From Microvirga lupini (lineage in GTDB: Bacteria > Pseudomonadota > Alphaproteobacteria > Rhizobiales > Beijerinckiaceae): a DNA stretch of 39,055 bases. The notes beneath the pieces are model-generated. The model saw only the letters and a list, made by a program, of their open reading frames with translations. It did no database searches and had not been told where the DNA came from. Positions 3,633-39,055 of the stretch are shown here, one piece after another. The stretch covers positions 176,151 through 215,205 of the forward strand of contig KI912045.1 in the NCBI GenBank assembly GCA_000517005.1. Reading direction: 5' to 3'. The position numbers and the translations under genes are program-made. Positions within the stretch are counted from its first letter, which is position 1. Every line of letters starts with the position of its first letter.

Positions 3633-3819
3633 GTTCCTCCATGCGTCGAAGCAGGGCTTCAATGGCGTCCTTCGCATCGTCGCAGCGGATCGCTGTGTCG
3701 ACGCCCGTTACGATAGCTCTCCGTGCCGTCCTCTCGTGCTGGCGCGAAACCCACTCGCGGCGCGCGTCTGTCTCGGCGCTATTCCCTATTCCGAGCCAGT
3801 GCTTCAGACGGTGGATCAT
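3610..3819 (-). CDS. Small soluble protein in lysis block, 69 aa
   Basis: A charged, helical protein (Arg/Glu/Asp-rich) with no membrane segment or signal peptide. Its ATG overlaps the stop of the spanin-like gene (ATGA), and its end overlaps the start of the multi-TM gene, so it sits tightly inside the lysis operon. No family was recognised. A regulatory partner of the neighbouring membrane proteins is possible, but that rests only on position. Confidence 0.55.
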   Translation of the reverse strand: MIHRLKHWLGIGNSAETDARREWVSRQHERTARRAIVTGVDTAIRCDDAKDAIEALLRRMEERNAGDDT

Positions 3820-4175
3820 GTCTGTCGGCCCTCCAGCAAGCGGCAGAGCCGCTCAAGCGTCTCGTGGGTTTTGTCGTCGTTATGCGCCGCGTCGATACGC
3901 AGCTCGCGCATCTCCGCAGCCAGCACCTCTGCAGCGCGTGTCCGTGCTTCCATGGCGCGATTGGTGCCCTCAAGGGCAAGCGTCATTGAGGCTATGGCGC
4001 TCGCGGAATCCTGCACCGCTTTGATCAGCGCCTTGGTGTCTTCAAGCCGTGCGTTCGCGCAGGCCTTGCTCTCCCGGTAAAGGAGGACAGTGACGATGCC
4101 GCTGATCACCAGGAGAACGCCAAGCAGCCCCTGCGCGAAGAGCGCCTTTGCACCTTCTTCAACGAGCAACTCCAT
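3816..4175 (-). CDS. Membrane-anchored coiled-coil protein, spanin-like, 119 aa
   Basis: One N-terminal transmembrane segment (about residues 12-33) is followed by a long charged coiled-coil region to the C-terminus. This is the usual plan of an Rz-type inner-membrane spanin, which links inner and outer membrane at the last step of lysis of Gram-negative hosts. The ATG lies 8 bp after the endolysin stop. No separate lipoprotein (o-spanin) is obvious within or next to it. Length fits the spanin class. The call depends on topology and context because spanins share little sequence; a phage-encoded membrane coiled-coil with another role cannot be excluded. Confidence 0.5.
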   Translation of the reverse strand: MELLVEEGAKALFAQGLLGVLLVISGIVTVLLYRESKACANARLEDTKALIKAVQDSASAIASMTLALEGTNRAMEARTRAAEVLAAEMRELRIDAAHNDDKTHETLERLCRLLEGRQT

Positions 4176-4183
4176 GCATCACC

Positions 4184-5359
4184 TCACGAAAACAGCGGCT
4201 TCTTGGCCTTGAGCCGGCCATAGAGGGCCCAGATGGCACCGAGGGTGGTGACGATGCCGCCGCCGATCAGGATGAAGTCTTCCTTGTATGCCTCGAGGTC
4301 GTAGCCAAAGATCTTGGCGATGCCGATCAGGGTCACCACCACGCCGGCCGCGACGCCGGCCGTGCCACCCTGCACGACCCGGGACTGCACAATCGGCTCG
4401 GGCTCGGTGTTCGTGATGTGCTCGAGCCTCGCCTCGATCTCCCGCAGCCGGGGATCGCGCTGGGCCTCGATGACGACCTCCGCGGCCACATCGGGTGCCG
4501 CAGCCTCGGGAAGAGGCGTGGTGACCTTCCTGGCAGCCTTGATGACGGCATCGGTGAGGATGTCGGCGACCACAGGTATCAGGATGCTGCCCACCAGGGG
4601 CGTCGGTTTGCTCGGCATGGGGATCTCTCCGAAGTAGGTGGCGAGCGCCACATAGGCGTCCCAGAGCGGGCCAGAACGCGCAGGGGTCACAACCGGCTCG
4701 ACCGGTTGCGGGACAACAGGATTCTCGATCTCAGGCGACCAGAGGGTGTCGGGCTTCTTCGCCCACCACGCGTACGCCGCTGCCAGCTTGGTGTGGTAGT
4801 TGTTCTCGGCGTAGCGAGCGCCATTGTAGCCGCGGGCGAAGCCGCTCCAATTGTGCGCGCGCAGCTCGTCCTCCAGCTTGTTCGCGCAAATGAAGCGGAC
4901 CATCGCCTCGAGGTGGTTGTCCTCGTCTAAGGCGAAGTCCACCACCATGGCCTGCGGACTGTCGTAGCCGGCCGAGACGTAGTTCTCGCCCAGGATCTGC
5001 GACAGGCCCCAGCTGCAGGCCTTCAGCGCTGCGGTCTCGTTGATCTCGAGAGCCTGCAGCAGCCGCGGATAGGAATCCTTCGGGTAGGATCCTGGCTTCC
5101 AGTCCTTGTACGCGAGCCCCTTGGCCACCGCGACGTTGCGCTCGGTGCCTTGCAGGTTGCGATAGAAGACGTGCGGTTCGAACAGGATCTTGGGCCGGCC
5201 CTGGCTGTCGAAGCCAGAGCCTGAGGCCTCCACGTCGATCACAGCGTGGATCTCGTCCTCCCCCACACCAATCATGTGACCGATGCGGGGGAGATCGATG
5301 TCTTCGATGCGCTTGGCTGCGCCGACAAAGCCGGCGGCCTTCAGTTGCTCGAATGTCAT
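4184..5359 (-). CDS. Endolysin: N-acetylmuramidase domain with C-terminal TM segments
   Basis: 391 aa. Residues about 20-200 match the N-acetylmuramidase fold of phage endolysins: a likely catalytic Glu at about residue 44 in IDVEASGSGFD, then FEPHVFYR, a CSWGLSQILG segment and FARGYNG. It would cleave the peptidoglycan glycan strand. A Pro-rich linker (about 210-250) and a charged region lead to two hydrophobic segments near residues 335-355 and 365-385, ending in a basic tail. The ATG at 5359 is chosen over upstream in-frame TTG codons that fall in the terminator. The added membrane part is longer than a plain muramidase needs and suggests anchoring or a holin-like function. Confidence 0.8.
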   Translation of the reverse strand: MTFEQLKAAGFVGAAKRIEDIDLPRIGHMIGVGEDEIHAVIDVEASGSGFDSQGRPKILFEPHVFYRNLQGTERNVAVAKGLAYKDWKPGSYPKDSYPRLLQALEINETAALKACSWGLSQILGENYVSAGYDSPQAMVVDFALDEDNHLEAMVRFICANKLEDELRAHNWSGFARGYNGARYAENNYHTKLAAAYAWWAKKPDTLWSPEIENPVVPQPVEPVVTPARSGPLWDAYVALATYFGEIPMPSKPTPLVGSILIPVVADILTDAVIKAARKVTTPLPEAAAPDVAAEVVIEAQRDPRLREIEARLEHITNTEPEPIVQSRVVQGGTAGVAAGVVVTLIGIAKIFGYDLEAYKEDFILIGGGIVTTLGAIWALYGRLKAKKPLFS

Positions 5360-29973: not shown

Positions 29974-31433
29974 CAATCCATATTGGACACCAGACGGAGA
30001 GTGCGCTGTTGCTGCTCGCCTTCGTCGCCCTCGTCAGTGCCCTCGCCCTGGCCAGCGCCTTGGTTCTGGCCCTCTGCAGCCTGCTGGACGACATTGCCGT
30101 CGCGGTCGATCACAGCGACGTTGACGGGGACGTAGCGCACGTCGCCATTTGGCAGCGGGTTGAGACCCAGCGGGAGCTTGTCGCGCGCCTCGTTCAGTTC
30201 GATCACCCCGTTCTTCACGAAGGTATCAAGGATCTTGGTCAGCGACGCTGCGTCGGTGGCCATCAGCGTCATGCGGTCAAACTCAGGATACAGCCGGCCC
30301 CAGTCGTCTTCCTCGATCAGCGAGAGACGGAAGCCTTCCTCGATCTCCTCGGCCAAGGGGATCAGCGAGGTGTTCGCATAGGCGTCGTTGGCGTGGGCCT
30401 GATTGTCGTACTTCACCGTGTCCAGATGCATGATCTTGTGCGGCGATACGCGCATCAGACCGCAGATCCGGAGGACCATGGCGTTATAGGTCTCGACGGT
30501 GAGCGAATCCTTGGAGTTGACCGCCACCGATTTGGCCTTCAGGCCGGCTTCCAACAGGAGCGGCTCGCCATTCCGACGGTTCTTGCGGACTCGCTGGGTC
30601 AGCTGATCCTTCAAGCGACGGAAGGCTGCATCGGCCATCTCGCCTGTGAAAGCTTGGTCCGTCTCAAAGATGAGGTTCGTCTCGCCTTCGTTCTGGAAGA
30701 GGTTGGACTGATACTCACTGATCGCATCCACCAGCCGGAAGAGACCGGAGCCCAGATCGAGGTTCGACCACCCCTTGAGGCCCGACATCGTGCGACCGCG
30801 CATATGGATCACGCGGGAGGACGGCAGGACGAGATTGTCCGTGCGGCCGGGAGGCAGGCCATGGAGAGCGCGTTCGTACTCGGTGGTGATCGCGATCTCG
30901 TAGAACAGCTTGCCGCCTTCGCTGATCCGCTCCTGCACCCGTGCAGGCGGCACCGGCACCAGGGAGATGACGTTGCCCATGCGGTCGATCTCGATCACCA
31001 CATAAGCGTTTTGAGCCAGTTTCAGGTGCATGGTCGTCATGCGCCAGAAGTGCTTCCACGACATGAAGTCGTTCGGCCGGCGCACCAGCATGCGAGCGAA
31101 CCAATGGTTCTCAGGCTGCACCTCCTGATACTCACGGCGACCATTGGTCAGGATCTTCTGCCAGAGCACCATCTCGGCGCGAGCGATGTCGTCAGCGACC
31201 ACATCGGCGCACTGGATGGCGATGGCCAGACCCACGGCATCCTTCAGGCCGAAAGCGTAGGGCATGCCCATGCCATTAAGACCGAGCATGTCACCGACAT
31301 CCGTCCACAGCAGATCCTGCCAGGGAGCGGGATCCATGGTGTTGAGATTGCCGGGGAATGGCTCGAGCGGGTTCGCCAGCGGAGACTCGATGGTGCTCTT
31401 CTCGCCGAGATCCAGATAGTCTCTTTCGCTCAT
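29973..31433 (-). CDS. Portal protein, HK97-type, 486 aa
   Basis: The portal pattern is clear: AVGLAIAIQCADVVADDIARAEM near residue 70, FWRMTTMHLKLAQNAYVVIEIDRMGN, LPSSRVIHMRGRTMSGLKG, and the long helix with QSNLFQNEGETNLIF. The C-terminus is Gln/Gly/Glu-rich. It forms the dodecameric ring at one capsid vertex through which DNA is packaged. The ATG overlaps the terminase stop (ATGA). Confidence 0.9.
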   Translation of the reverse strand: MSERDYLDLGEKSTIESPLANPLEPFPGNLNTMDPAPWQDLLWTDVGDMLGLNGMGMPYAFGLKDAVGLAIAIQCADVVADDIARAEMVLWQKILTNGRREYQEVQPENHWFARMLVRRPNDFMSWKHFWRMTTMHLKLAQNAYVVIEIDRMGNVISLVPVPPARVQERISEGGKLFYEIAITTEYERALHGLPPGRTDNLVLPSSRVIHMRGRTMSGLKGWSNLDLGSGLFRLVDAISEYQSNLFQNEGETNLIFETDQAFTGEMADAAFRRLKDQLTQRVRKNRRNGEPLLLEAGLKAKSVAVNSKDSLTVETYNAMVLRICGLMRVSPHKIMHLDTVKYDNQAHANDAYANTSLIPLAEEIEEGFRLSLIEEDDWGRLYPEFDRMTLMATDAASLTKILDTFVKNGVIELNEARDKLPLGLNPLPNGDVRYVPVNVAVIDRDGNVVQQAAEGQNQGAGQGEGTDEGDEGEQQQRTLRLVSNMD

Positions 31434-33298
31434 GCTGCTGCTCCAGCGAGACCGCGGTTCAGATACGGGTTAGGCAGCGGCTGGGCTTTGTCGGTCTGAC
31501 CGAGGACACCGGCCTCCCAGTCGATCCTGAGAGCGTTGCTGATGATCAAAGCGTCCATGCCGTCGATGTTGGCTTTCGACCCGGGCTTTTCCTTCTTGGG
31601 CAACACGTTGTCGTTCGCGTCCCAATGCCCGACCACATTGCCCGCGCACCACGCGCTGATGGGGTTGCCATCGTGCTGCAGCAGCCGCGGATCGGTGACG
31701 CGAGCGATGAGGTCTTCGGTGCTCTGCGTCAGGTACTTTGCCCTCTTGGGGACGATGAAGACCGTGTAGCCGGCCTCTTCGATTTCCTTGCCCATGAGGT
31801 TGGCTTGGTAATCGTCCAAACCAACGCCGATCACCCTGTGGCCCTCGAGTTTCGCCAGGATCTGCTTCAGGATGACCTTGTAATCGATGAAGCCGCCGGG
31901 GGTGAGCGTGAGCCATTCATCCTCATGCCACTGGTGGAAGGCATCGGCGAAGCGATCATCCTCCAGGCGGCTTGCCTTCTCGGGCAGCCAGTACTCTCCG
32001 GTCGTGTACACGCAGCCATCGACCACGGTCAGGTAGGCTGCCGCGTTCAAGTCCGATCTCGAGGCCAAGTCGATGCCGACGAAGAGCGGGAAGCCCCTGA
32101 ATGCATCGAGATTGAGCTTCGTATCCTCGCAGGCGTTCCAGGCATCCACGTCGATGAGGTTGCCGGCGGCTCGGGACCAGATATTGACCCGGGTTCGGAG
32201 GTACTCATTGAGTTTCGACGGGCTCTTCCTGGCTTCGATGATCTCCTCGTCCAGCGAGGCCGGATTGAGCGAAACACCCCAAAGCGGATTGACCTTCTCG
32301 ACGACGCGCGGATCGAAGCGTCGCTCGGCATCCTCCTTTGAGGCTGCGTAGATGACCACAAAGGCGCGATCTGCGCGCATGCGGCCGGAAAGCACAGCCT
32401 GGGCGAACTTCCAATCCTCGTATGCCGCGGAATTGACGTCACGGCCGGCGGTCGAGATCGACAGCCACAGCGGATTCCGCCGCGAGCCCATGGCAGTGCG
32501 CAGAACGCCGATCACCTCCTGGGACTGAGCGTGTAACTCCTCGGCCAGGACCACATGCGGGTTGAGACCGTCGAGATTCTTCGCCTTGCTCGTCGCCAAG
32601 GTGATCCTGGCGTCGACCTTGGTGAACTCCGTGTAATCCCGGGTGTCGTGGACCCCGTACCGCTCGACGAAATCGGGCTCCAGCTTGAAGGTTTTCCGCA
32701 GCATCCCGTAGGGGATGTTCGCCTGCGCGATGGAGCCGGCGGAAATCGTGGCTTCCGCTCCAGGCTCGTCCTCGCAGGTCAAGCAGTAGAGCACGACGCC
32801 GACCGAGAGGGTCGATTTTGCGTTTTTGCGGGGCACCCAGAACGATACCGAGCGCACCCAGCGCAAGCCGGTTTCAGCCTCGCGGAAGGCGAAGATGCCG
32901 GCAAGCCACCAGCACTGCACCGGCTCGAGGACAATGGAGCCTTCGAACGCCTTCGTGTGCGGCAGCTTCTCCACGAACGAGCACACATCGACGATGTGCG
33001 CGTCGCTCCAGTAGTAGGCACCGACCGCGGTCTGCGCGATCTTCCTCATGTCGAGGAATCGTCGGCAGGCCTGGATCTCCTCAATGCAGGCAGGCACCTT
33101 GCCCGCCAGCACGGCCTCGCAATACCAGACAGCCATCCCCGGATAATCGGGGAAATTGTCGTTGGCTATCTCTGGATATTGCTTCGGATCCAGCTGGATC
33201 TCTCGGAAGACCTTATCGGCGGCGCGACGCGAAACCAGCGCGCGCGAACTTGTTGGTTTTCGCGTCTGCGGGCGACGCGACCGGTTTGTCGAGGTCAT
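31430..33298 (-). CDS. Terminase large subunit
   Basis: About 622 aa. The ATPase domain has a Walker A-like segment near residues 157-164 (PRKNAKST), a Walker B acidic pair near 253-255 (HVVLAEELHAQ), and coupling residues after it. The nuclease domain starts near residue 409 with VGIDLASRSDLNA, followed by GVGLDDYQA. It packages DNA into the prohead and cuts it. The start is an ATG (33298) or the TTG one codon before; both lie within the end of the small-subunit gene, an overlap of almost 90 nt. The adjacent HNH protein may act with it. Confidence 0.95.
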   Translation of the reverse strand: MTSTNRSRRPQTRKPTSSRALVSRRAADKVFREIQLDPKQYPEIANDNFPDYPGMAVWYCEAVLAGKVPACIEEIQACRRFLDMRKIAQTAVGAYYWSDAHIVDVCSFVEKLPHTKAFEGSIVLEPVQCWWLAGIFAFREAETGLRWVRSVSFWVPRKNAKSTLSVGVVLYCLTCEDEPGAEATISAGSIAQANIPYGMLRKTFKLEPDFVERYGVHDTRDYTEFTKVDARITLATSKAKNLDGLNPHVVLAEELHAQSQEVIGVLRTAMGSRRNPLWLSISTAGRDVNSAAYEDWKFAQAVLSGRMRADRAFVVIYAASKEDAERRFDPRVVEKVNPLWGVSLNPASLDEEIIEARKSPSKLNEYLRTRVNIWSRAAGNLIDVDAWNACEDTKLNLDAFRGFPLFVGIDLASRSDLNAAAYLTVVDGCVYTTGEYWLPEKASRLEDDRFADAFHQWHEDEWLTLTPGGFIDYKVILKQILAKLEGHRVIGVGLDDYQANLMGKEIEEAGYTVFIVPKRAKYLTQSTEDLIARVTDPRLLQHDGNPISAWCAGNVVGHWDANDNVLPKKEKPGSKANIDGMDALIISNALRIDWEAGVLGQTDKAQPLPNPYLNRGLAGAAA

Positions 33299-33608
33299 CA
33301 AGCCCTAAGCTGTTGCGGGCCTTGTCCATCTGCGCGACCCACGATCCTCGGATCGTTTTGCCTTCACTGGGCGCGGCAGAGATGTTGTCGAACTGCATGG
33401 CGTACGACGACAAGGCGCGGTGTTTGGCGACCGTCATATGCCCCGCATCGAAGAGCACCCTGGCGAGCGTGTTGTACTCGCGCCTGGCTTCCTTCGTGCG
33501 AAGCGGGAAAAGGCAATCGGGGATCTTGCGGAAGCCAGGATGCGCCACGACTCGAGGATCGCCGCCACCGACCTGCGCTGGCTCCTGATCCTGTCTCTTG
33601 GCTCTCAT
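33213..33608 (-). CDS. Terminase small subunit, P27-type, 131 aa
   Basis: A helical protein with REYNTLARVLFDAGHMTVAKHRALSSYAMQFDNI in the middle, the pattern of P27-family small terminases, and a basic C-terminus (KFARAGFASRRR). It recognises the packaging site on phage DNA and recruits the large subunit. Its ATG overlaps the DUF3606 gene stop (ATGA), and its end overlaps the large subunit. Confidence 0.85.
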   Translation of the reverse strand: MRAKRQDQEPAQVGGGDPRVVAHPGFRKIPDCLFPLRTKEARREYNTLARVLFDAGHMTVAKHRALSSYAMQFDNISAAPSEGKTIRGSWVAQMDKARNSLGLDDLDKPVASPADAKTNKFARAGFASRRR

Positions 33609-34138: not shown

Positions 34139-34215
34139 TGGTTGCGGGGATCGGATTTGAACCGATGACCTCTTGGTTATGAGCCAAGCGCACTACCGGA
34201 CTGCGCTACCCCACG
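34139..34215 (-). tRNA. tRNA-Met (CAT), initiator-like, CCA encoded
   Basis: A complete 77-nt cloverleaf: acceptor CGTGGGG/CCCCGCA with a C1-A72 mismatch, D stem GCGC/GTGC, anticodon stem CTTGG/CCAAG with loop CTCATAA, T stem ATCGG/CCGAT with loop TTCAAAT, discriminator A and encoded CCA. The C1-A72 mismatch, the loop sequences and the overall layout match bacterial initiator tRNA. However, the anticodon stem keeps only two of the three usual G-C pairs, and the 11-24 pair is C-G rather than the initiator type A-U. It may supply fMet-tRNA or have altered decoding. It lies 8 bp after the Acb2-like gene. Confidence 0.9.
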
Positions 34216-34223
34216 ATAAACCT

Positions 34224-34454
34224 TCAGGCCGTGATGCTCTTCACGGCCCACATCACCGCTTCCTCGACCTTGGGCTTCGCCAGGGAGATCTCCTGGCTGT
34301 TGCCGAGGCCGGCGATGAGGTCATGGAAGGCCAGACCGGCATCCTTGACCGCTTGCATGTTCGCCTTTTCCTCGTCGGAGAGCACACGGTATGCGTGGCG
34401 CATGGTGTTGTTCACGGTGCGGTTGTCGGAAGTGCTGTCGACGGTGTCTGGCAT
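34224..34454 (-). CDS. Acb2/Tad1-hairpin-type protein, putative anti-CBASS sponge, 76 aa
   Basis: The protein has a helical hairpin pattern: AYRVLSDEEKANMQAVKDAG, LAFHDLIAGLG, then ISLAKPKVEEAVMWAVKSIT. I recognise this as the form shared by phage proteins assigned to the Acb2/Tad1 hairpin domain, whose characterised members bind cyclic oligonucleotides made by CBASS defence and block effector activation. The ATG at 34454 overlaps the HNH gene stop (TGATG) with GGAG upstream; a TTG one codon earlier is the alternative. It is cytoplasmic. Some family members have been found in structural regions, as here. The assignment rests on recalled pattern, not a search. Confidence 0.65.
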   Translation of the reverse strand: MPDTVDSTSDNRTVNNTMRHAYRVLSDEEKANMQAVKDAGLAFHDLIAGLGNSQEISLAKPKVEEAVMWAVKSITA

Positions 34455-34843
34455 CAAACGTCTCCACGAAACTTGGGCCTGGAGCCAGGATCGTCACACC
34501 AGCGCTGCAGCATGTGCAGCTGGCCGGTCTCCTTCGCATACGCCTCGAGTCGGGCCTTGAGGCCTGAGTGATGCTCGTTGCAAAGGCTGTGGTGGTTCTC
34601 CGGATCCCAGAAGCTGCCGCCGGCTGACACGGGCCACTTGTGGTCGACGACGCCGGTCCTGCCGATCACGACCAGCGTGGTGCGCCCGGCCTGCCGGCAG
34701 AAAGCACAGAACGGATGCTTCTTGCGAAAGACCTCCGAGTATCTGCGCCACTTGGCGTCGTACCCCTTGTCAGTTGGGCTCGGCTCCTGGGGTCGGACCA
34801 GTTTAGCGACCGGTTTGGGTCGCGACCGGAAGATGCTTGGCAT
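34454..34843 (-). CDS. HNH endonuclease of the packaging region, 129 aa
   Basis: The zinc-supported HNH fold is visible: Cys46/Cys49 in FCAFC, VVDHKWPVSAGG near residue 66, PENHHSLCNEHHSG near 81-94. Small HNH proteins next to terminase genes are known to assist terminase cutting in HK97-like phages. The ATG 34843 is first in frame, with a weak ribosome binding site. It probably heads the late operon, since the upstream 250 bp has a terminator for incoming leftward transcripts and no gene. Confidence 0.85.
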   Translation of the reverse strand: MPSIFRSRPKPVAKLVRPQEPSPTDKGYDAKWRRYSEVFRKKHPFCAFCRQAGRTTLVVIGRTGVVDHKWPVSAGGSFWDPENHHSLCNEHHSGLKARLEAYAKETGQLHMLQRWCDDPGSRPKFRGDV

Positions 34844-36889: not shown

Positions 36890-37084
36890 TCAACCCTCCG
36901 CTGGGCCTGGATCCGCTCTCCGGGACTGGATTGCCTGAAGCTCCCTCGTCAGCCGTGCGTTCTCGTCGCGCAGCCTCTTGATCTCTTCCGAGGCCTTCAG
37001 GATCGTTCCCACCGCCTTGCCAAGCGCCCTGTGGTTGATCACTTGCTTGGCCGCTTCGTGCAGATCATCCAGTATGTCGCTCAT
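36890..37084 (-). CDS. Small coiled-coil protein, 64 aa
   Basis: A helical protein with heptad spacing in the second half (SEEIKRLRDENARLTRELQAIQ), probably a coiled-coil dimer. Its ATG overlaps the stop of the gene above in an ATGA arrangement, which selects this start over the longer frame. No family recognised. It is in the regulatory/early part of the element, downstream of the XRE regulators. Confidence 0.6.
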   Translation of the reverse strand: MSDILDDLHEAAKQVINHRALGKAVGTILKASEEIKRLRDENARLTRELQAIQSRRADPGPAEG

Positions 37085-37326
37085 CGTCCCTCTCCTGGCA
37101 GACTCTCTCCCCATTCAACGAAACGCCACAGCTCGCCCATGGCCTCTTGGATCAGCGGGTAATGGTACGCGGGGAGACCTGGATAGGCCTGCCGGATCAC
37201 ATCCAGCACCTCTGGATCGTCGGGGTGGATCTGACGCTGGACAAGGAGGTAAAGGCCTGCAGCCCTGACGTTGAATTTCCCATTCGGGAGCCATCCAGGC
37301 GGTTTATCTTCTGTCATATTGTCCAT
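37081..37326 (-). CDS. Small hypothetical protein, 81 aa
   Basis: A soluble protein with VRQAYPGLPAYHYPLIQEAMGELWRF-like helical content and a conserved-looking PGWLPNGKFNVRAAGLYLLVQRQ start. An alternative ATG lies three codons in (37317). Coupled to the 64-aa gene by ATGA. No family recognised; it probably belongs to the early or lysogeny-related genes. Confidence 0.55.
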   Translation of the reverse strand: MDNMTEDKPPGWLPNGKFNVRAAGLYLLVQRQIHPDDPEVLDVIRQAYPGLPAYHYPLIQEAMGELWRFVEWGESLPGEGR

Positions 37327-37433
37327 TCTTTCGCGGTCATCATCAGCCTCTCGCTATACTTCGAATGCGGGTATCTCGCTCATGCGGCTTCCGTATGGTC
37401 ACAGGGGTGCAAAACTGAATTGGCGAGCGCAAC

Positions 37434-37473
37434 TCGTCAGGCATCCACCTGCTGTAGCTTCTCAGCGAGGTAA
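37434..37473 (-). repeat. Remnant copy of an XRE gene 3' end (downstream repeat)
   Basis: These 40 bp match 38334-38373 at 35 positions in direct orientation. Read on the minus strand the copy encodes IYLAEKLQQVDA and a stop, versus VYLAEKLRQVDT and a stop in the intact XRE gene. It lies 900 bp downstream of the matching end, on the other side of the GIY-YIG gene. Confidence 0.75.
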
Positions 37474-37536
37474 ATCGGCACAATAAGACGTTCAAATCTC
37501 ACGCGGTCGAACTCTCGGCTTTAGATGCGAGTTCCA

Positions 37537-38322
37537 CTAAAAACGCGTCGCGAGATTGCCAAAAACTGGGCCTGTTATGTCGGCATGCATAAAGCACCTC
37601 ACCGGCGGTGCGAACAGACGCTGAAACCCGATGATATTGGAGTAGCCTGCCGTTGTGAGCCTCGAGAACGACGCATGCAGTGTCAAGCAGCCGGCAGATA
37701 AACCCGCCCGCTTCCCCGCCTTCTGAATATCGTAATACCCATGCTGTAAGGCTTGGGATATTCTCCAGGTCGCCCAGGCAAGAGCATGCCCGCGTGTACG
37801 GCATCCATCCTCATGCGCTTCCTCTCGAAGCGAAGCTAACCTCCTCGGGCTAATGACGGCGGGATAGCTTTTCCACGGCCCTCGGACTTCCCAAAGGGCA
37901 AAATGTCCGACGATACGTTTATCTGTAATTGTCGATAGGCGTCCCTGATGGACTGGGCAGGTTTGCGGATCACAGGAGCGAGGATGATGCGGTAGACCCT
38001 GATTTCGGCCAGTGTTGCCATTCAAAAGGTTTTTCAGTCCAATTTCCCCAATCCGCTCGCTTTCCGCAGCATACGCTTCGTCCTCTTGGTCATAACAGGA
38101 GATTACGTACGGGGCGAGATCTTCGGGTGCAGTGCCATTGAACAGCGCGTCTTTAAGGTATTGCTTGAGCCTTGGTGGTGTATACCGCTCCTCTCCAGAG
38201 AGAACACCGTTTAGGTGATCCCATGCGCGAACACTTCTACCCTTTCCAACATACAGAGGCTTCCTCGTCGCTGGGTCACGATACTCATAGATATAAAAGC
38301 ATTTCGCGGACCAAACGGACAT
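37537..38322 (-). CDS. GIY-YIG family nuclease, 261 aa
   Basis: N-terminal GIY-YIG domain: YIYEYRD near residue 10 and PLYVGKGRSVRAWDH near 23-36, with Arg32 and His36, a Glu near 87 in AYAAESERIGEIG and Asn in NLLNGNTG. The C-terminal about 150 residues (including a Cys/His-containing stretch CDPQTCPVH) are not recognised and may recognise DNA. Start signal AAAGGAGG with good spacing, 14 bp after the XRE stop. The gene is flanked by a 40-bp imperfect direct repeat of the XRE 3' end, as if it arrived with its own copy of the target end. It is likely a selfish homing-type nuclease. Confidence 0.8.
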   Translation of the reverse strand: MSVWSAKCFYIYEYRDPATRKPLYVGKGRSVRAWDHLNGVLSGEERYTPPRLKQYLKDALFNGTAPEDLAPYVISCYDQEDEAYAAESERIGEIGLKNLLNGNTGRNQGLPHHPRSCDPQTCPVHQGRLSTITDKRIVGHFALWEVRGPWKSYPAVISPRRLASLREEAHEDGCRTRGHALAWATWRISQALQHGYYDIQKAGKRAGLSAGCLTLHASFSRLTTAGYSNIIGFQRLFAPPVRCFMHADITGPVFGNLATRF

Positions 38323-38333
38323 GAGGCCTCCTT

Positions 38334-38373
38334 TCGTCAGGTATCCACCTGCCGCAGCTTCTCAGCAAGGTAG
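38334..38373 (-). repeat. XRE gene 3' end, upstream repeat partner
   Basis: The functional 3' end and stop of the XRE gene at 38337, matching 37434-37473 in 35 of 40 bases. The similarity ends just after the stop codon on one side and about 11 codons before it on the other. Confidence 0.75.
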
Positions 38374-38648
38374 ACAGGAAGCGAGTACTCTATTCCCCTG
38401 TAGAGCCAATCGAGGGATGCACCTGTTCTTTCACAAAGCCTCAGGGCCTCGTCTATCGTTATGCGGCGGCTGCCGCTTTCAAAGACGTGCCAACTCGGCT
38501 CAAGGGTGCCAATGAAATTGCACCAAGCTCGTTTCTGCGTGAACCCCAGAGCAAGACGCAATCGGCGCAGCCTGAGGGCGATCTCGTCGATCTTATCGGG
38601 CCGTCGTTCCTGCTTCGTCGGAATTTCGTCTCGCACTGTCCTGTCCAT
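38337..38648 (-). CDS. XRE-type regulator, 103 aa
   Basis: A helix-turn-helix of the XRE type: RLRRLRLALGFTQKRAWCNFIG, then SWHVFESGSRRITIDEALRLCERTGASLDWLYRG, close to the pattern of the gene upstream. The N-terminal about 22 residues are charged and specific to this copy. The first ATG (38648) is preferred, with a GTG one codon earlier possible. It is probably a lysogeny or early-gene regulator, 9 bp after the first XRE gene, in the same transcript. Confidence 0.8.
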   Translation of the reverse strand: MDRTVRDEIPTKQERRPDKIDEIALRLRRLRLALGFTQKRAWCNFIGTLEPSWHVFESGSRRITIDEALRLCERTGASLDWLYRGIEYSLPVYLAEKLRQVDT

Positions 38649-38657
38649 CACGCTATC

Positions 38658-39055
38658 TCACGCCTCGATGATGATCTTGATGCTGGAGGGGTCAACCCCG
38701 AGGGAGCGAGCAAGCCGTCTTTTTGCCTCTGCAATGGTCAGAAACTCGTTGTTCGTCTTGACTCTCGCAGGAGACTCGGCGGGAGCATCCGTCGGATCAG
38801 CTATCTCATCGCTGCTTAGACAGCCCTCTTCGTCTGTCAGGGGTTCATCCGCTCCCAATTCCTGAAGGCGCTGTTTCAGATCATCGGATAGCCTCTCGCC
38901 ATCTCCACGGTAGATCCAGTCGAGAGAAACGCCAGCTTTCTCAGCGATCTTCACCCCGTCTTTAGCGGTGGGGGCACGTCGCCCATGTTCAAAGTGGTAC
39001 CAACTTGGTTCAGCGAAGTCCAAGAACTGGCAGAAGGTTCGGGCCTGCTTGAATC
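38658..39055 (-). CDS. XRE-type regulator, 5' end outside the window
   Basis: The frame is open to the window edge and its DNA-binding part begins before the first internal start (TTG at 39023), so the true start lies beyond 39055. Visible: KQARTFCQFLDFAEPSWYHF, then GVKIAEKAGVSLDWIYRGDG, matching the second XRE protein. The C-terminal half (about 70 residues) is acidic then basic, with TIAEAKRRLARSLGVDPSSIKI, possibly for oligomerisation. It is a candidate phage repressor or paralogue; which of the two acts as repressor cannot be decided here. Confidence 0.75.
   Translation of the reverse strand, partial: FKQARTFCQFLDFAEPSWYHFEHGRRAPTAKDGVKIAEKAGVSLDWIYRGDGERLSDDLKQRLQELGADEPLTDEEGCLSSDEIADPTDAPAESPARVKTNNEFLTIAEAKRRLARSLGVDPSSIKIIIEA

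What the first reader, a model, noticed from the sequence alone, without database searches (positions are those of the whole stretch)
37434..38373. GIY-YIG nuclease gene bounded by a duplicated XRE gene end
A 40-bp direct repeat (35/40 identical) flanks the nuclease gene at an offset of exactly 900 bp. The upstream copy is the working 3' end of the XRE gene; the downstream copy is a stranded remnant. This fits a mobile unit that enters a gene end and brings a replacement end, so the target stays functional. The divergence between copies suggests that the unit came from a related but different XRE gene.
Basis: partly seen in the sequence, partly recalled or inferred. Interest (0 to 1): 0.7.

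Follow-up and report, generated by a model that had tools for sequence, protein, structure and literature searches.

The report
Nuclease gene in a regulator-gene junction
In a phage-like accessory region of a Microvirga bacterium, a probable phage-defence nuclease gene sits in the joint between a regulator gene and its usual neighbour, leaving a duplicated scrap of that joint behind; it is an instructive but essentially ordinary case of gene shuffling.

Summary
The repeat is real: 37434-37474 and 38334-38374 match at 36 of 41 bases, offset exactly 900; 20 controls reach at most 29. The distal copy is not just a stranded XRE end. It is an XRE|WGR gene junction: the XRE stop overlaps the ATG of a WGR-domain gene, and the window continues MPDELRSPIQ, the start of a multicopy WGR type that I saw in at least 14 of 48 genomes of the genus. 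In nuclease-free G015 an XRE gene overlaps this WGR gene directly, and its end is 39/41 identical to the remnant. The working XRE end carries the same footprint with ATG changed to ATA, and its last 25 codons are chimeric (67/75 DNA identity to G015's XRE, against 96/189 for the body). So the nuclease interrupts an XRE|WGR junction. Nothing shows a self-moving unit: the only close relative nuclease has no XRE match on its 15-kb locus, none of 68 other WGR junctions read carries a duplicate, and no inverted repeat or integrase was found. The nuclease resembles the defence enzyme CMoRE (PD-T4-3) in its N-terminal half and is frameshifted. Whether the remnant duplicates this XRE's tail or ends a third XRE gene stays open.

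The parts
38337..38651 (-). XRE_a, 104-aa helix-turn-helix regulator ORF; upstream partner
   Evidence: (Pfam HTH matches just below cut-off)
38337..38414 (-). Chimeric tail of XRE_a: last 25 codons plus stop, 67/75 DNA identity to G015 XRE_x against 96/189 in the body
38334..38374 (-). Working copy of the 41-bp repeat; its last 11 nt (ATACCTGACGA) look like a WGR start with ATG changed to ATA
38323..38336 (-). 14-nt spacer with AAGGAGG, a likely ribosome-binding site, between the XRE_a stop and the nuclease ATG
37537..38322 (-). GIY-YIG (GIYxY-YIG) nuclease ORF, 261 aa as read; N-terminal half conserved
37499..37705 (-). Conserved C-terminal part of the nuclease in another frame (frameshift near 37705); this frame ends 24 nt before the remnant
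   Evidence: tblastn of the G031 nuclease, 27/65 identical, E 4e-17
37434..37474 (-). Distal copy of the 41-bp repeat: XRE tail end, 39/41 identical to G015 XRE_x
37415..37444 (-). Truncated start of a WGR-domain gene, MPDELRSPIQ, overlapping the remnant XRE stop
37081..37326 (-). 81-aa ORF downstream; 92% DNA copy on contig C38 of the same genome, where no XRE or WGR precedes it
38658..39053 (-). XRE_b, partial at the window edge (a run of 100 N follows)

Best explanation
The 900-bp segment is a passenger GIY-YIG nuclease gene inserted in the joint between XRE_a and a downstream WGR-domain gene, inside a mosaic accessory region of a prophage-like element. SHOWN: the repeat; the identity of the distal copy as an XRE|WGR overlap; XRE|WGR overlaps without nuclease in G015 and (another XRE) in G031; the chimeric tail of XRE_a; the nuclease frameshift. 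INFERRED: an XRE_b-XRE_a segment first recombined with an XRE_x|WGR locus inside the conserved LDWIYRG codons, giving XRE_a an XRE_x-type tail joined to WGR. The nuclease with its ribosome-binding site then entered the joint after the first 11 nt of WGR, by a one-off recombination or repair event that duplicated about 41 bp of the joint. The WGR body was lost. XRE_a stayed intact because its stop codon lies inside the duplicated joint. The nuclease most likely served as a restriction-type defence gene co-transcribed behind the regulator, and is probably impaired now.
For: Repeat and controls. G015: XRE_c, 92% DNA over 291 bp to this locus, then XRE_x, then WGR with gATGCCTGAcga overlap; XRE_x end 39/41 to the remnant. 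G031:C108: XRE followed by the same kind of overlap. Beyond the repeat the remnant encodes ELRSPI, matching the WGR starts listed. XRE_a body/tail discordance: 96/189 against 67/75 identical bases, and same codon at 18 of 21 shared residues in the tail (23-65% in the nine other pairs of five XRE genes). A Tyr codon shared by XRE_a and the remnant, against His at this position in XREs of G015, G018, G030, G017 and G031, favours a common source. The related element of G007 has no XRE or nuclease match on 20 kb; its HNH-like gene and next small gene are about 0.5 kb apart, against about 8.3 kb here. Nuclease N-half matches CMoRE structures, profile E 1.4e-13.
Against: No XRE_a|WGR junction without the nuclease was found; the empty junctions belong to other XRE genes. 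The remnant is closer to G015 XRE_x (2 differences) than to XRE_a's tail (5), which a simple duplication would not predict unless XRE_a's tail changed faster. A 41-bp duplication has no assigned enzyme here. The insertion order is inferred from one informative codon. The single-sequence search with the G031 nuclease matched the CMoRE chains only weakly (E 0.001).
Confidence: 0.48

Rival explanations
1. The remnant is the end of a separate XRE gene (G015-type XRE_x) that stood before WGR; XRE_b, XRE_a and the nuclease replaced its body, leaving 41 bp.
For: G015 has XRE_c-XRE_x-WGR in this order, with XRE_c 92% identical to the upstream gene here. The remnant is 39/41 identical to XRE_x but 36/41 to XRE_a. 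XRE genes stand in tandem here and in G015 and G031:C364.
Against: It leaves XRE_a's own XRE_x-type tail and its WGR-start footprint to a separate event. XRE_a and the remnant share a Tyr codon that XRE_x lacks. Retained ends would have to overlap by just 41 bp by chance.
Confidence: 0.32
2. One reading: a mobile nuclease unit enters XRE gene ends and carries a replacement end, like an integrating island at a gene 3' end or a homing endonuclease.
For: Architecture fits; XRE_a's tail is of foreign lineage to its body; nuclease-free XRE|WGR junctions exist.
Against: No second instance: G031's nuclease has no XRE hit on 15 kb and only short chance-like repeats; none of 68 WGR junctions read carries a duplicate. 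No inverted repeats. The foreign tail tract (about 78 bp) is longer than the repeat. The nuclease is frameshifted and closest to a defence enzyme.
Confidence: 0.13
3. Assembly artefact at a mosaic locus.
For: A run of 100 N lies in XRE_b just beyond the window and the nuclease has a frameshift; the genome's contamination estimate is 6.03%.
Against: The gap is over 600 bp from the working copy of the repeat; the segment is continuous; the copies differ at 5 sites and the distal one matches another genome's XRE|WGR junction.
Confidence: 0.04

Closest known systems
CMoRE / PD-T4-3 type IV modification-dependent GIY-YIG restriction enzyme (PMC12923530: search listing with abstract start, and passages; PDB 9U75, 9U7U)
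   Same: N-terminal GIY-YIG half: 107-residue profile match, E 1.4e-13; third tyrosine (YxY...YVG), Arg and Glu present and invariant in the three aligned sequences; single gene of similar size
   Different: The match stops near residue 115; no similarity to the modification-sensing C-terminal part; frameshifted here; activity unknown
Free-standing GIY-YIG homing endonucleases of T-even phages (seg genes; review PMC2988022, passages seen)
   Same: A GIY-YIG gene placed between phage-type genes, positioned to use the upstream gene's transcript
   Different: No Pfam domain was matched in the C-terminal part of the intact G031 relative, no recurring insertion site, no cleavage tested
Nuclease genes at boundaries of genetic exchange in phages (PMC10448857, abstract and outline seen)
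   Same: A nuclease gene at a junction where neighbouring sequence changes ancestry
   Different: There, large islands flanked by homing genes; here one small gene in a shuffled operon
Islands integrating at gene 3' ends (recalled, no call)
   Same: Repeat at both ends, gene end restored by one copy, distal copy stranded
   Different: No integrase found in the 900-bp segment

Membership tests
GIY-YIG nuclease superfamily | GIY-YIG catalytic motif with conserved Arg and Glu | tested here: met
   Y10, Y12, Y24, G26, R32, E87 invariant in three aligned sequences (window, G031, G035); Pfam LEM-3_GIY-YIG 19.2 bits (window) and 22.6 bits (G031) are below its cut-off of 27; profile match to GIY-YIG crystal structures
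CMoRE / PD-T4-3 | GIYxY-YIG motif (third tyrosine) | tested here: met
   Alignment places Y10-x-Y12 and Y24 on YVY and Y of the CMoRE chain; motif description from passages of PMC12923530
CMoRE / PD-T4-3 | C-terminal domain sensing modified cytosine | tested here: inconclusive
   Match ends at residue 115; structure model unusable, mean pLDDT 37
CMoRE / PD-T4-3 | Degrades 5hmC-containing phage DNA | not testable with these tools
   needs biochemistry
Free-standing homing endonuclease | Allele without the gene has the intact target | tested here: inconclusive
   XRE|WGR junctions without nuclease exist, with other XRE genes upstream
Free-standing homing endonuclease | Relatives of the nuclease occupy the same site | tested here: not met
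   One close relative only: the G031 nuclease follows a 243-aa ORF; no XRE hit on its locus, only short chance-like repeats
Free-standing homing endonuclease | Cleavage near the insertion site and biased inheritance | not testable with these tools
   needs experiment
Transposon or insertion sequence | Terminal inverted repeats and transposase | tested here: not met
   No inverted repeat of 18 nt or more; the nuclease ORF fills 786 of the 859 nt between the copies and has no transposase match; shorter inverted repeats were not sought
Integrative element at a gene 3' end | Integrase within the element | tested here: not met
   Same ORF content; no integrase match for the nuclease ORF
Integrative element at a gene 3' end | Gene end duplicated, one copy restoring the gene | tested here: met

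The most novel reading that the evidence does not exclude
The XRE-tail/WGR-start joint is a recombination joint of a genus-wide shuffling system. Small WGR genes act as a common 3' partner onto which many unrelated accessory genes are spliced at the WGR start codon, often losing their own stop and using one inside the WGR start. The nuclease entered this joint, possibly by cutting the conserved WGR start (ATGCCTGACGA), after whose 11th base the inserted sequence begins.
Probability: 0.12. Interest if true: 0.6.

Novelty: new member of a known kind. Interest (0 to 1): 0.35.

Why it matters
It gives a readable case of how an accessory gene enters an operon without breaking the gene before it, because the stop codon lies in a duplicated gene overlap, and it points to small WGR genes of Microvirga as frequent recombination partners. 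If the WGR joint is a real shuffling site, it would explain how small accessory genes are exchanged in these genomes and plasmids.

Tried and rejected
Contig C38 as the empty site: it carries the 81-aa gene and the upstream genes M and P without XRE or nuclease, but P is cut short there, so it may be a deletion and not an ancestral state.

More nuclease relatives: one scan of genome contigs (12 stretches matched a pattern, none confirmed) and one of viral contigs gave none; no match in phages or plasmids; 3 of 200 relatives (own genome, G031 58%, G035 33% over 102 residues) and 3 of 397 order genomes (own genome and two weak partial matches).

More XRE ends: the degenerate viral-contig pattern gave none; the 36-base pattern with 3 mismatches hit 2 of 200 genomes, G000 twice and G015 once. 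XRE protein searches matched 16 of 200 and 22 of 397 genomes, no plasmid, two Bradyrhizobium phages at 46-49% over about half the length (not opened) and two viral contigs at 37-41% (used only).

Structure of the G031 nuclease from a single sequence: mean pLDDT 37, discarded, no fold search.

A general duplication at WGR junctions: rejected for what was read. In 68 copies with a readable start the best upstream match is 24/41, no more than the shuffles give; five copies had less than 700 bp upstream. The 68 are the copies in the fetched loci, chosen from the best matches, not all copies in the genus.

Literature: five searches. Two named WGR: with Rhizobium and plasmid (4 papers) and with Microvirga (one name validation list). 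Of the four I saw passages of PMC13055273, which in what was shown deals with plasmid-transfer regulators and not with small WGR genes. I make no claim that the WGR pattern is absent from print.

Full report
WHERE IT IS. The window lies in a 628-kb contig of a 9.6-Mb, 160-contig genome. The window carries a large terminase (31430-33301; both TerL domains) and a small ORF that I read as HNH-like (34454-34843; no Pfam match). The G007 element has a 69% identical terminase, and no XRE or nuclease match on 20 kb. There the HNH-like ORF and the next small gene are about 0.5 kb apart; here their counterparts are separated by about 8.3 kb, so the finding sits in an accessory insertion of a prophage-like element.

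THE REPEAT. 37434-37474 and 38334-38374 match at 36 of 41 positions, offset 900. No other offset from 41 to 1999 in the window reaches this score; 20 Markov controls peak at 27-29. The 38334 copy is the end of XRE_a (104 aa). 14 nt after its stop codon, with AAGGAGG between, the nuclease ORF starts.

WHAT THE DISTAL COPY IS. In genome G015 (L031), an XRE gene 92% identical in DNA over 291 bp to the XRE gene beyond the window edge (XRE_c, L002:10247-10573) is followed by a second XRE gene, XRE_x. The end of XRE_x is 39/41 identical to the remnant, and its last 93 bp are 87% identical to XRE_a. The XRE_x stop codon overlaps the ATG of a WGR-domain ORF (Pfam WGR, 38.9 bits against a cut-off of 22), which starts MPDDLQSPIK. 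The window's remnant has the same overlap and continues MPDELRSPIQ (ATG at 37444). WGR ORFs match in 36 of 48 genomes of the genus, weak and partial matches included, with 13 matches in this genome. Copies with a readable start were read from 23 genomes, and those starting like MPDELRSPIK come from 14 of them (fetched copies only). In G031:C108 an XRE_c-like gene also overlaps a WGR start...GATGCCTGACG. The distal copy is therefore an XRE|WGR junction. The end of XRE_a, GATACCTGACGA, looks like the same footprint with the WGR start codon changed to ATA; then the sequence turns to the nuclease. The arrangement is XRE_a body - joint - nuclease - joint - truncated WGR.

XRE_a IS CHIMERIC. Against XRE_x its body shows 96/189 identical bases and the last 25 codons 67/75. 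Shared residues use the same codon at 18 of 21 positions in the tail; in the nine other pairs among five XRE genes this is 23-65%. A recombination tract of an XRE_x-like tail is the simplest reading. By hand from the sequences: remnant to XRE_x 39/41, remnant to XRE_a 36/41, XRE_a to XRE_x 36/41. XRE_a and the remnant share a Tyr codon where XRE genes of G015, G018, G030, G017 and G031 have His, the one site whose direction I could infer. It favours a common source of the two copies; the overall distances favour the third-gene reading. I could not settle this.

THE NUCLEASE. The family is rare: 3 of 200 relatives and 3 of 397 order genomes match, own genome included, and only G031 has a long match (58%). 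The G031 protein continues in another frame of the window (27/65 identical, E 4e-17), so the window copy is frameshifted near 37705; the old frame ends at 37499, 24 nt before the remnant. GIY-YIG residues are conserved in three aligned sequences. A three-sequence profile matches the crystal structures 9U75 and 9U7U over residues 9-115 (E 1.4e-13); the single G031 sequence gives E 0.001; a PADLOC model of PD-T4-3 also matches weakly over residues 8-47 (E 1.6e-4). The passages of PMC12923530 describe this enzyme, CMoRE, as a type IV restriction endonuclease with a third tyrosine in the motif, a feature present here. The C-terminal part is not matched. A defence role is thus inferred, not shown. 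G031's nuclease follows a 243-aa ORF, has no XRE hit on its 15 kb, and the repeats found within about 2 kb of it are short and chance-like (16-24 nt, 71-81%).

IS IT A GENERAL MECHANISM? For 68 distinct WGR copies I looked for a second copy of the joint in up to 1.5 kb upstream: the best is 24/41, as in shuffled controls, while the window scores 36/41. Duplication is a one-off among the loci read. The WGR genes themselves are notable. I split them by a crude rule on the N-terminus. Of 35 copies of group A, mean pairwise DNA identity jumps from 0.32 in the ten bases before the ATG to 0.82 in the first twenty of the gene; the upstream ORFs fall into 18 groups without similarity to each other (some may be spurious ORFs), none was found for three copies, and in 15 of 35 the upstream ORF ends at a stop inside the WGR start. 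Of the 33 copies of group B, 26 have an upstream stop 12-16 nt before the ATG, and 27 upstream ORFs have a similar C-terminus by a simple pattern. P-type genes precede WGR in five group A copies; here P is followed by the XRE array.

VERDICT. Observation confirmed. The claim of a mobile unit is not supported. A third XRE gene as source of the remnant remains a serious rival.

Noticed in passing
L031, L073-L101, L103-L150: Small WGR-domain genes are multicopy in this genus (13 matches in this genome, 22 and 23 in G047 and G031, weak ones included); group A copies share sequence from the start codon on but follow many unrelated genes, which often end at a stop inside the WGR start. WGR also matches 1319 of 72,556 plasmid records.
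   Followed up: partly
window 37499-37705: The nuclease ORF is frameshifted relative to its G031 relative; whether real or a sequencing error is unknown.
   Followed up: yes
L002 10056-10155 (just beyond the window end): A run of 100 N, probably a scaffold gap, lies inside XRE_b and would explain where the window stops.
   Followed up: partly
G000:C38 (L042) 3695-4249: A 4.2-kb contig of the same genome with a 92% copy of the 81-aa gene joined to shortened P and M genes; an IS66 transposase fragment lies at the other end.
   Followed up: partly
L031 10817-11284: A resolvase-domain ORF matching only the later part of the domain (positions 61-144 of 145) follows the WGR gene in G015.
   Followed up: no
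window 34139-34215: A tRNA-Met gene (anticodon cat) is predicted beside the HNH-like ORF of the prophage-like element.
   Followed up: no
window 34844 to L002 14188 (equivalent to window position 43188): About 8.3 kb of accessory genes separate two genes that are about 0.5 kb apart in the related G007 element.
   Followed up: partly
L002 17232-18197: A DUF5131 protein (317.9 bits) is encoded further on in the prophage-like element.
   Followed up: no
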